Source: Bacillota bacterium (lineage in GTDB: Bacteria > Bacillota > Negativicutes > Sporomusales > CTSoil-080). From it: a stretch of DNA of 64,000 nucleotides. A program made the translations under genes and the position numbers. A model generated the notes under the pieces. The model did not search any database. It saw only the letters and a list, made by a program, of their open reading frames with translations, and was not told the origin of the DNA. Positions 77 through 3,520 of the stretch are shown piece by piece. The first letter of the stretch is position 1; each line of letters opens with the position of its first letter. Location: assembly GCA_017889625.1 (NCBI GenBank), contig JAGGAD010000010.1, positions 1-64,000 on the forward strand, written 5' to 3'.

Positions 77-359
77 ATAATATCAATCTTGCCTATGTAT
101 TAGGGAGTGTAAAGCAGATATAGAAATAATTAAAAAATAGAGTTGTAATAATTATTATCAAGTAGTACAATATAAATATAATTTTTATAATTACATAGTA
201 AATATTATCAAACATATTATAAGATGACCAATTATGATTAGCTGGCTTCCGAAGGGGGCAAGAATTGGCGGAGTCACTGGAGCTTAAGGAGTTTTGATTG
301 CGGCGATTAATCATAGAATGATATCGAAGCAGTCGCTTTAATTATGAGGAGGTGTATTT
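77..359. other. AT-rich upstream region of the acyl-CoA dehydrogenase fusion gene
   Basis: This stretch is strongly AT-rich up to about 230 and then more GC-rich (240-310). I see no convincing gene. A 73-codon reading frame on the minus strand has a low-complexity Ile/Tyr/Phe-rich translation and no Shine-Dalgarno sequence. The only clear signal is the ribosome binding site GAGGAGG at about 344-350, upstream of the start at 360. The promoter of the downstream gene should lie here but no strong hexamer pair stands out. Confidence 0.4.
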
Positions 360-2267
360 ATGTTGTTTAAGACTACCGAACAACATGAAGCGTTGAGGGG
401 AAAAATCAGAAAATTTGCCGAAGAGGAAGTTAAACCGATTGCCTTTATGTTGGATCAGGAAAATAAATTTCCTTCTGACGTAATTAAAAAGCTGGCTTAT
501 ATGGGGATGCTGGGGATTCCATATCCCAAAGGGTACGGTGGAGCAGGTCTGGACATAATCAGTTATGCAATCGCTGTTGAAGAATTATCAAGAGTGGACG
601 GTGGTACCGGCGTAATTCTTTCGGCTCATACATCCTTAGGGGCATATCCAATTGCTGGCTATGGCACAGAAGAGCAAAAACAAAAATACTTGATTCCCTT
701 AGCAAAGGGAGAGAAACTTGGCGCATTTGGGTTAACAGAGGAGAATGCGGGAAGTGACGCTGGTGGTACTGAGACGATGGCTGTCTTAGACGGGGACTAT
801 TACATATTAAATGGTGAAAAGATTTTCATCACCAACGGTGGTGAGGCCGATATTTACATTATTTTTGCAATCACGACCCCAGATATTGGTTCGCGTGGTA
901 TCAGCGCGTTTATCGTCGAGAAGGGGTGGGAAGGCTTTAGCTTCGGACAACATTACAACAAAATGGGGATTCGTTCTTCGGCAACTGCCGAGCTTATTTT
1001 CAATAACGTGAAAGTTCCTAAGGAAAATTTATTAGGTAACGAGGGCGATGGTTTCAAGATTGCTATGGCAACCTTGGATGGCGGACGGATTGGCATTGCC
1101 GCTCAGGCTCTTGGTATCGCCCAAGGTGCTTATGAGAATGCCCTAGCGTATTCAAAAGAAAGAATTCAATTTGGCAAACCTATCTGCCAGCAACAGATCA
1201 TTGCTTTTAAGTTGGCGGATATGGCGACAAAACTTAGAGCCGCTAGATTACTTATTTACAGTGCGGCCGAGCTAAAAGAAAATCATGAGCATTACAGTAT
1301 GGAAGCAGCTATGGCTAAACAATACACTTCAGACGTTTGCCTTGAGATTGTAAACGATGCACTGCAAATTTTTGGCGGAAGTGGTTATCTAAAAGGTATG
1401 GAAGTGGAGCGGGCTTATCGGGACGCTAAGATTTGTACCATATACGAAGGAACTAATGAGATTCAGCGGGTTGTTATCTCGGCAAGTATCATTGGTAAAA
1501 TGCCAAAGACAGAGCAAATAAGTAAAGCCGCTAAAAGTGGACCTGCCACGGGGTATCGTAAGAAAGTGATTTTAAATAGTGGCACGCCGCAAGAAAGAGT
1601 TGATACTCTTGTGCAAGCGCTTAAGGCTGATGGCTATGATTTCACCGTGGGAATTCCTTTAGACACTCCGATAAGTAAAGCGGAAAGAGTCGTCAGTGCG
1701 GGTCAAGGCATTGGGGAAAAAGAAAATATGAAGTTAATAGAAGCCTTGGCAGTTCAGGCCGGTGCAGCCATTGGGTCATCTCGTCCCGTAGCTGAAACCC
1801 TTAAATACGTACCAATAAATCGCTATGTGGGGATGTCAGGGCAAAAATTCAAGGGGAATCTTTATATTGCCTGCGGTATTTCAGGGGCTGGTCAACATTT
1901 AAAAGGAATAAAGGATGCGTCGACAATTGTCGCGATAAATAATAATGCGAATGCCAAAATCTTTAAGAACGCCGATTACGGTATCGTTGGCGATTTAATA
2001 GAAATATTGCCATTGCTTACAGCCGCTTTAGACAACGGAGCGTCTAAAAATGAAGCTCCGCCGATGAAGAAACTAAAAAAAGCTGCTCCGAAGACCGTTG
2101 CGCCCAAGTGGAAATATCATGTATGCAATGGCTGTGGCTATGAATACGATCCTAGCGTGGGTGACCCAGAAGGTGAAGTAATTCCGGGCACGTCGTTTGA
2201 AAATCTGCCTGACGAGTGGACCTGTCCGGCTTGTGGTGAAGAAAAAGATGTGTTTATCGAAGTCTGA
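360..2267 (+). CDS. Acyl-CoA dehydrogenase - EtfA-like FAD domain - rubredoxin fusion
   Basis: Flavin acyl-CoA dehydrogenase/reductase with its own electron-transfer modules, 635 aa. Residues 1-380 are a complete acyl-CoA dehydrogenase, including the catalytic Glu363 in [10 protein letters not shown]. Residues about 440-556 match the C-terminal FAD domain of EtfA (SAGQGIG 445-451, SRPV 474-477, GMSGQ 491-495, CGISGAGQH 505-513). A Lys/Pro-rich linker (560-582) leads to a rubredoxin at 585-633 with Cys589, Cys592, Cys622 and Cys625. The EtfA N-terminal domain and EtfB are absent. A flavodiiron protein gene follows 53 bp downstream, so electrons from an acyl-CoA may pass via FAD and rubredoxin to an O2/NO-reducing partner. 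The fusion is seen directly; the electron route and the substrate are inferred. Start ATG with GAGGAGG upstream. Confidence 0.93.
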
Positions 2268-2320
2268 TTTCGCTAGAAAGTAAATATAATTAGGCGTTTC
2301 TAATAAGGAGGATTAAACCT

Positions 2321-3520
2321 ATGTATTGTGTTAGAAATATAACTGAAGATCTATATTGGGTTGGTGGCAATGACCATCGCCTTAATCTCTTTGAAAATAT
2401 TCATCCCATTTCACAAGGTGTTTCCTATAACTCTTATCTACTTTTAGATGAGAAGACAGTTCTCTTTGATACGGTAGACTGGTCAATTTGCCGTCAGTTC
2501 CTTGAAAATATTAAAGCGGTCCTAGGTGATAGGTCGTTAGATTATATGGTAATTAACCATATGGAGCCGGATCATGCTGCGTGCATTGAAGAGATTATTC
2601 TCCGGTATCCGCAGGTAAAAATTATATGTACGGAAAAAGCGGCTCTGCTAATGCATCAGTTCGGCTTTGACATCGATGGTAAATTAATCGAAGTCAAAGA
2701 AGGGGATACGAGATCCTTTGGCCACCATGAGGTTGCATTTGTGGCTGCGCCAATGATACATTGGCCAGAAGCGATGGTGACGTATGATACTACCAACGGC
2801 GTATTATTTTCCGCTGATGCCTTCGGATCTTTTGGCGCTTTGGACGGTAAGCTGTTTAATGACGAAGTCAATTTTGACCGGGATTGGCTTGACGAGGCCA
2901 GAAGGTATTATACCAATATTGTTGGCAAGTATGGTCCGCATGTTCAGGCGCTGTTGAAAAAGGCTGGCACTATTGCTATCAAGATTATCTGCCCGCTGCA
3001 TGGACCGGTATGGCGTAATGACTTTGGATACTTATTAGATAAATACGATAAGTGGAGCCGTTATGAACCTGAAGAAAAAGGGGTAATGATCGTTTATGGA
3101 ACTATGTACGGAAATACTGAGGCCGCGGCCAACGACTTGGCAACAAGGTTAGTGAAAAAGGGAATGACCAATGTGGTTATGTATGACGTTTCCAAAACAC
3201 ATGTTTCCTATTTGATTTCTGAGACCTTCAAATATAGTCATGTGGTTCTTGCTTCCGTAACCTATAACCTAAAAATTTATCCCCCAATGCTGGATTATAT
3301 AATGGACATGAAAGCCCTAAACCTTCAGAAGCGTACCTTCACGCTGATCGAAAATGGGTCCTGGGCGCCACAAGCCGGCAAATTACTGCGTGAACTTTTG
3401 GAAGATATGAAAGAAATGACGATCTTAGACAATGAGCTGACCTTGAACTCCAGCATGAAAGAAGGGGATGGGGATTCAATGGACACCATTGCGGAGAGCA
3501 TTATCGAGTCGATGAAATAA
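2321..3520 (+). CDS. Flavodiiron protein (FprA-type oxygen/NO reductase)
   Basis: Cytoplasmic class A flavodiiron protein, 399 aa, the normal length for the family. The N-terminal metallo-beta-lactamase-like domain carries the di-iron ligands His80, Glu82, Asp84, His85 (motif HMEPDH), His147, Asp166 and His227. From about residue 255 comes a flavodoxin domain with the FMN phosphate loop GTMYGNTEAAA. Family members reduce O2 to water, or NO to N2O, with electrons from rubredoxin. The rubredoxin is fused to the acyl-CoA dehydrogenase encoded just upstream (53-bp gap, own AAGGAGG Shine-Dalgarno), suggesting one transcription unit for oxygen defence. Whether O2 or NO is the true substrate cannot be read from sequence. 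Confidence 0.95.
   Translation: MYCVRNITEDLYWVGGNDHRLNLFENIHPISQGVSYNSYLLLDEKTVLFDTVDWSICRQFLENIKAVLGDRSLDYMVINHMEPDHAACIEEIILRYPQVKIICTEKAALLMHQFGFDIDGKLIEVKEGDTRSFGHHEVAFVAAPMIHWPEAMVTYDTTNGVLFSADAFGSFGALDGKLFNDEVNFDRDWLDEARRYYTNIVGKYGPHVQALLKKAGTIAIKIICPLHGPVWRNDFGYLLDKYDKWSRYEPEEKGVMIVYGTMYGNTEAAANDLATRLVKKGMTNVVMYDVSKTHVSYLISETFKYSHVVLASVTYNLKIYPPMLDYIMDMKALNLQKRTFTLIENGSWAPQAGKLLRELLEDMKEMTILDNELTLNSSMKEGDGDSMDTIAESIIESMK

What the first reader, a model, noticed from the sequence alone, without database searches (positions are those of the whole stretch)
360..3520. One-polypeptide acyl-CoA dehydrogenase-EtfA domain-rubredoxin next to a flavodiiron protein
Seen: dehydrogenase with catalytic Glu363, a C-terminal-only EtfA FAD domain and a four-Cys rubredoxin in one 635-aa chain, followed 53 bp later by a complete flavodiiron protein. 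Known: acyl-CoA dehydrogenases use separate EtfAB; flavodiiron proteins take electrons from rubredoxin. Inference: a self-contained route from acyl-CoA to O2 or NO that bypasses EtfB and NAD(P)H, or alternatively rubredoxin-driven enoyl-CoA reduction in the reverse direction.
Basis: partly seen in the sequence, partly recalled or inferred. Interest (0 to 1): 0.7.

Follow-up and report, generated by a model that had tools for sequence, protein, structure and literature searches.

The report
Butyryl-CoA oxygen oxidoreductase gene pair
This two-gene unit closely matches a recently described enzyme that lets anaerobic bacteria burn off oxygen with electrons from butyryl-CoA, so the window itself is an ordinary new copy, although relatives in one genus keep its rubredoxin part without the residues that hold iron.

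Summary
A 635-aa acyl-CoA dehydrogenase / EtfA FAD-domain / rubredoxin fusion (360-2267) is followed 53 bp later by a 399-aa class-A flavodiiron protein (FDP, 2321-3520). [quoted passage not shown] The window proteins are 75% and 64% identical to the pair of a close Fusobacterium relative. Catalytic Glu, FAD-site residues, four Cys and diiron ligands are intact. FDP follows directly in 74 of 77 homologous loci. The host genome has butyryl-CoA pathway genes (thiolase not searched). What may be new lies in relatives. All 29 loci taken from one genus (Anaerococcus by inference) keep the rubredoxin domain under purifying selection, but all four Cys are replaced (Asp, Ser, Ser, Ser) beside an FDP with intact ligands. 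Other fusions lack rubredoxin, and 21 of 22 of those have no FDP next to them.

The parts
347..354 (+). AGGAGGTG ribosome-binding site of the fusion gene
   Evidence: sequence
360..2267 (+). BCR-type fusion gene, 635 aa (acyl-CoA dehydrogenase - EtfA domain II - rubredoxin)
   Evidence: 75% identical to Fusobacterium vincentii BCR
375..1490 (+). acyl-CoA dehydrogenase domain, aa 6-377; best solved relative C. difficile butyryl-CoA dehydrogenase 5ol2
1446..1448 (+). catalytic Glu363 in the IYEGT motif (role recalled from acyl-CoA dehydrogenases)
   Evidence: invariant in 88 of 88
1671..2030 (+). EtfA C-terminal FAD domain (domain II only), about aa 438-557
   Evidence: Pfam ETF_alpha 438-518; aligns to the C-terminal domain of 1efp and 1efv
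2118..2255 (+). rubredoxin domain, aa 587-632, Cys 589, 592, 622, 625
   Evidence: Cys positions
2304..2312 (+). ribosome-binding site of the flavodiiron gene (TAAGGAGGA)
   Evidence: sequence
2321..3520 (+). class-A flavodiiron protein, 399 aa
   Evidence: 64% identical to Fusobacterium vincentii FDP
2420..3004 (+). metallo-beta-lactamase (ODP) diiron domain, aa 34-228
   Evidence: ligand positions
3083..3499 (+). flavodoxin (FMN) domain, about aa 255-393

Best explanation
[quoted passage not shown] Electrons from butyryl-CoA (or another short acyl-CoA) pass to the dehydrogenase FAD, then to the FAD of a tethered EtfA head domain, then to the fused rubredoxin iron, then to the FMN of the flavodiiron protein, and finally reduce O2 to water at the diiron site. 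The product crotonyl-CoA returns to the butyrate pathway. The modules and their site residues are shown here by sequence. The order of transfer, the substrate and the O2 reaction are inferred from the F. nucleatum homologue. The EtfA part is the head (domain II) without the EtfA/EtfB base, attached through low-confidence linkers, so EtfB is probably not needed.
For: Same domains, order and gene pair as F. nucleatum FN1424-FN1423, reported as a 4:4 complex that oxidises butyryl-CoA and reduces O2 (PMC12288474 passages). Identity to a Fusobacterium vincentii pair: 75% over BCR, 64% over FDP. Dehydrogenase domain closest to C. difficile butyryl-CoA dehydrogenase 5ol2 by sequence and by fold (60% identity). 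FDP directly downstream in 74 of 77 genome-contig loci and in 79 of 79 four-Cys rows of the 88-row set. Redox-site residues invariant. The assembly encodes a short-chain enoyl-CoA hydratase, a 3-hydroxybutyryl-CoA dehydrogenase and a butyrate kinase above NCBIfam cut-off, plus acyl-CoA dehydrogenases and a phosphate butyryltransferase-like protein below cut-off. AF2 model: folded modules joined by stretches with pLDDT under 50 at aa 383-393 and 576-583.
Against: No biochemistry in this organism. Bystrom & Wolthers 2024 is not held and was known only through citing papers. FN1424/FN1423 themselves were not compared; a Fusobacterium vincentii copy was used. Substrate chain length was not tested and thiolase was not searched. 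Relatives in one genus lack the rubredoxin iron ligands, so the rubredoxin step cannot hold for every member. The model (pTM 0.60) came without coordinates, so no flavin distances were measured.
Confidence: 0.9

Rival explanations
1. The pair reduces NO instead of, or as well as, O2 using acyl-CoA electrons.
For: Some class-A flavodiiron proteins are NO reductases (recalled); the nearest solved relatives by E-value are named anaerobic nitric oxide reductase flavorubredoxin and nitric oxide reductase.
Against: The F. nucleatum BCR-FDP complex is reported to have no NO reductase activity (passages).
Confidence: 0.05
2. It runs in reverse: reduced rubredoxin drives enoyl-CoA reduction, and FDP is a separate neighbour.
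For: Acyl-CoA dehydrogenases are reversible (recalled); the best NCBIfam model for the chain is acryloyl-CoA reductase, below its cut-off (474 of 640 bits).
Against: FDP is immediately downstream of every four-Cys fusion examined (79 of 79 rows; 23 of 23). The published homologue is an acyl-CoA to O2 complex, and the review gives about -10 mV for butyryl-CoA against +820 mV for O2.
Confidence: 0.03
3. Same architecture and O2 reduction, but the physiological substrate is a different short acyl-CoA such as isobutyryl- or propionyl-CoA.
For: The host has three further acyl-CoA dehydrogenases that match the fusion, and its phosphate butyryltransferase-like protein scores below the phosphate butyryltransferase cut-offs.
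Against: The closest solved relative is butyryl-CoA dehydrogenase; the hydratase and 3-hydroxybutyryl-CoA dehydrogenase at C70 and the butyrate kinase at C84 pass their cut-offs.
Confidence: 0.1

Closest known systems
Butyryl-CoA oxygen oxidoreductase (BOOR; BCR FN1424 + FDP FN1423) of Fusobacterium nucleatum
   Same: Same domain order and adjacent FDP; 75%/64% identity to the pair of a close Fusobacterium relative; redox-site residues kept
   Different: Different phylum; no biochemical test here
Bcd-EtfAB electron-bifurcating complex (C. difficile 5ol2)
   Same: Dehydrogenase domain 60% identical; EtfA domain II homologous
   Different: No EtfA domain I in the chain and no EtfB as its partner gene; rubredoxin and FDP as acceptors; no bifurcation expected (inference). 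Separate EtfBA-like gene pairs exist elsewhere in the genome
Class-A flavodiiron proteins (rubredoxin:oxygen oxidoreductase 1e5d, nitric oxide reductase 1ycf)
   Same: beta-lactamase diiron plus flavodoxin domains, conserved ligand positions
   Different: Donor is a fused acyl-CoA dehydrogenase chain, not an NAD(P)H:rubredoxin reductase system (inferred)
BOOR beside an Rrf2 regulator in Roseburia and other gut Clostridia (PMC13404960, passages)
   Same: Same gene pair
   Different: One Rrf2 query found no Rrf2-like gene in the loci of the window's two nearest relatives; the window contig starts 359 bp upstream, so its own upstream side cannot be read

Membership tests
BOOR (BCR + FDP) | acyl-CoA dehydrogenase - EtfA C-terminal domain - rubredoxin in one chain | tested here: met
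BOOR (BCR + FDP) | flavodiiron gene directly adjacent on the same strand | tested here: met
   53 bp gap
BOOR (BCR + FDP) | catalytic Glu, EtfA FAD residues, four rubredoxin Cys, diiron ligands intact | tested here: met
BOOR (BCR + FDP) | high sequence identity to a Fusobacterium pair | tested here: met
   75% and 64% to F. vincentii, not to FN1424/FN1423 themselves
BOOR (BCR + FDP) | 4:4 complex with butyryl-CoA-dependent O2 reduction | not testable with these tools
   reported for F. nucleatum (passages)
BOOR (BCR + FDP) | host makes butyryl-CoA | tested here: inconclusive
   hydratase and 3-hydroxybutyryl-CoA dehydrogenase (C70) and butyrate kinase (C84) above cut-off; acyl-CoA dehydrogenases and phosphate butyryltransferase-like protein below cut-off; thiolase not searched
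Electron-bifurcating Bcd-EtfAB | EtfA domain I and EtfB as partners | tested here: not met
   no such domain in the chain and the next gene is an FDP; other nearby ORFs were not scanned with profiles
Class A flavodiiron protein | beta-lactamase plus flavodoxin only, with six diiron ligands | tested here: met

The most novel reading that the evidence does not exclude
In one genus (Anaerococcus by inference) BOOR has become independent of rubredoxin iron. The fused rubredoxin is kept under purifying selection as an iron-free docking module, and electrons pass from the tethered EtfA FAD directly to the flavodiiron FMN, or through a separate free rubredoxin. Together with rubredoxin-less dehydrogenase-EtfA fusions, this would make the tethered EtfA head a portable one-chain replacement for EtfAB that serves several acceptors.
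Probability: 0.4. Interest if true: 0.6.

Novelty: new member of a known kind. Interest (0 to 1): 0.35.

Why it matters
It adds a member from the window's lineage to an O2-detoxifying, butyrate-linked electron route known from Fusobacterium and gut Clostridia. On the tree it sits inside a Clostridium-dominated clade, and in its own order it was found in 2 of 28 genomes, which suggests horizontal spread. The Cys-less relatives offer a natural test of whether rubredoxin iron is needed for electron flow to flavodiiron proteins. They also show that a Pfam rubredoxin hit above cut-off (29 of 29) need not mean an iron site.

Tried and rejected
Promoter/terminator scan: no excess over shuffles (promoter-like 12 found, 10.1 expected; terminator-like 2 found, 3.1 expected), so not used. 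NO reductase reading: rejected on the published homologue. Reverse direction: rejected on neighbourhood and published activity. Rrf2 regulation: with one Rrf2 protein as query, 8 of the 74 genome-contig loci that have at least 1 kb upstream carry an Rrf2-like gene within 1 kb; distant Rrf2 proteins could be missed. Interdomain geometry: no coordinates were available. A first Cys count used wrong positions and was redone. Two narrow paper searches on the Cys-less form gave 0 papers; they cover only the held open-access library and these words. In the tree the label 'rdless' on L210_3674 is wrong: that gene bears rubredoxin. The deepest nodes of that tree are weak (0.196, 0.322) and it was rooted at the midpoint, so the order of gain and loss of rubredoxin in the whole family was not decided.

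Full report
Observation. The window holds a 635-aa ORF at 360-2267 and a 399-aa ORF at 2321-3520, same strand, 53 bp apart. Pfam assigns the first acyl-CoA dehydrogenase domains (aa 6-377), the ETF_alpha FAD domain (438-518) and rubredoxin (587-632), with no ETF N-terminal domain; the second has ODP beta-lactamase and flavodoxin domains. The EtfA part aligns over the C-terminal domain of two solved ETF alpha subunits, 1efp and 1efv. In that alignment their 'VGQTG' reads 'VGMSG' in the window; that these residues lie at the flavin is recalled. The dehydrogenase part is closest to C. difficile butyryl-CoA dehydrogenase 5ol2 by sequence and by fold of the AF2 model (60% identity).

What it is. 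A review (PMC12288474, abstract and passages seen) states that F. nucleatum FN1423, a flavodiiron protein, is bicistronic with a gene for a fusion of butyryl-CoA dehydrogenase, the C-terminus of EtfA and rubredoxin (FN1424 by PMC12630350, passages). [quoted passage not shown] The primary paper (Bystrom and Wolthers 2024) is not held and was not seen. The preprint PMC13404960 (passages) reports the pair beside an Rrf2 regulator in gut Clostridia. I compared the window with a Fusobacterium vincentii pair (L160): 75% identity over BCR and 64% over FDP. FN1424 and FN1423 themselves were not compared.

Conservation. One scan of genome contigs kept 80 matches in 77 loci. In 74 of 77 an FDP gene lies directly downstream; the other three (L072, L075, L077) show neither a rubredoxin domain nor an FDP. 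In it Glu363 and six FAD-domain residues are invariant in 88 of 88; 84 of 88 have an FDP directly downstream; and the ligand positions are conserved in all 84 FDPs except for H227, missing in 2 rows cut by contig ends. Rubredoxin Cys: 79 rows CCCC, 5 rows DSSS, 4 rows without the domain; these 4 are the rows without FDP.

Host and spread. The window's assembly encodes an enoyl-CoA hydratase and a 3-hydroxybutyryl-CoA dehydrogenase above NCBIfam cut-off and an acyl-CoA dehydrogenase at C70. At C84 lies a second set (hydratase, 3-hydroxyacyl-CoA dehydrogenase and phosphate butyryltransferase-like proteins below the cut-offs of those names, butyrate kinase above). So butyryl-CoA is plausibly made; thiolase was not searched. 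A second, 32% identical FDP lies on C34. Among 60 genomes, own included, the full-length fusion is in 6 (G000, G002, G029, G034, G038, G059); within the order it is in 2 of 28, some of which are incomplete. In a sample of 398 genomes of the phylum, 6 had a match running from the dehydrogenase into the EtfA domain (G000, G029, G059, G085, G149, G371); for many genomes only 6 candidates were scored, so some may be missed. On a FastTree tree the window groups with G002 and G038 (support 0.967) inside a Clostridium-dominated clade of 53 leaves (0.895), with weak nodes in between (down to 0.163). This fits horizontal spread; the direction is inferred.

Mechanism. The AF2 model (mean pLDDT 82.4, pTM 0.60) has three folded modules, with stretches of pLDDT under 50 between them at 383-393 and 576-583. 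The likely path is acyl-CoA, dehydrogenase FAD, tethered EtfA FAD, rubredoxin Fe, FDP FMN, diiron, O2. The modules are shown by sequence; path, substrate and oligomer are inferred from the homologue.

Variants in relatives. In the family of G085, 89 of 130 genomes matched the C-terminal part of an Anaerococcus fusion at E up to 1e-40. In genus g305, 29 of 31 genomes matched, and all 29 loci taken have the rubredoxin Cys replaced by Asp, Ser, Ser, Ser, with an FDP 5-13 bp downstream and the six ligand positions intact in 29 of 29. That the genus is Anaerococcus is inferred: G480 matches the query from L067 (Anaerococcus sp.) at 100%, and a G476 contig has the length of an A. provencensis contig. 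Of the 60 other matching genomes I fetched 23 fusions from 21 genera (2 of the 60 matched only with a rubredoxin-less gene): 23 of 23 have four Cys and an adjacent FDP. Pairwise dN/dS of the Cys-less domain is 0.095 (median, 352 of 406 pairs), against 0.082 for EtfA, 0.056 for the dehydrogenase and 0.145 and 0.136 for the linkers; in the 23 four-Cys genes the rubredoxin value is 0.190 (59 of 253 pairs). Synonymous distances are near 1 or above in most of these, so the ratios are rough. They point to purifying selection. Pfam scores the Cys-less domain above cut-off in 29 of 29, and 31 of 31 g305 genomes have a separate short rubredoxin. The Cys-less sequences form one clade (11 sampled, support 1.0), with four-Cys sequences as the next branches (0.935, 1.0), so the loss probably happened once. 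An AF2 model of the Cys-less chain gives that domain similar confidence. No activity of this form is known to me, and it could have lost function or use the free rubredoxin.

Rubredoxin-less fusions. I looked at 22: L072, L075, L077, L156, the second gene of L210, and L215-L231. One of them (L222) is broken by a stop before its end, so its lack of rubredoxin rests on the match alone. In 21 of 22 no FDP lies directly next to the gene on the same strand; L225 has one about 110 bp downstream. The second gene of L210 lies just upstream of a complete BCR-FDP pair. Of the 29 matching g305 genomes, 18 have at least one further, shorter match of this kind. Their acceptor is unknown.

Verdict. The Cys-less rubredoxin of relatives is the surprising part. 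Two narrow searches of the held library gave no paper on it, which is weak evidence of novelty.

Noticed in passing
L162-L190 (genus g305), also L065, L067, L068, L069, L081: Fused rubredoxin domain keeps its fold signature but has all four iron-ligand Cys replaced (D,S,S,S) beside an FDP with intact ligand positions; dN/dS about 0.095 in L162-L190.
   Followed up: yes
L072, L075, L077, L156, L210 (second gene), L215-L231: Acyl-CoA dehydrogenase-EtfA fusions without rubredoxin (L222 broken); 21 of 22 have no FDP next to them on the same strand.
   Followed up: partly
L225 2679-5690: A rubredoxin-less dehydrogenase-EtfA fusion with an FDP gene about 110 bp downstream, the only such case among the 22.
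   Followed up: partly
L160 (NZ_CP084075.1): A 2.1 Mb Fusobacterium vincentii record is labelled a plasmid; its size suggests a chromosome.
   Followed up: no
L161 5545-9144: Vescimonas fastidiosa carries Rrf2 - BCR - FDP on a 142 kb record labelled plasmid.
   Followed up: no
L009 5523-5678: A 52-aa stretch 85% identical to part of the window's FDP lies upstream of the C. homopropionicum fusion gene, possibly a duplication remnant.
   Followed up: no
window 3182-3184 (FDP residue 288, Tyr): Arg in 29 of 29 FDPs of the Cys-less genus, Tyr/His/Phe/Trp in 34 of the 35 other rows; a possible compensating change.
   Followed up: no
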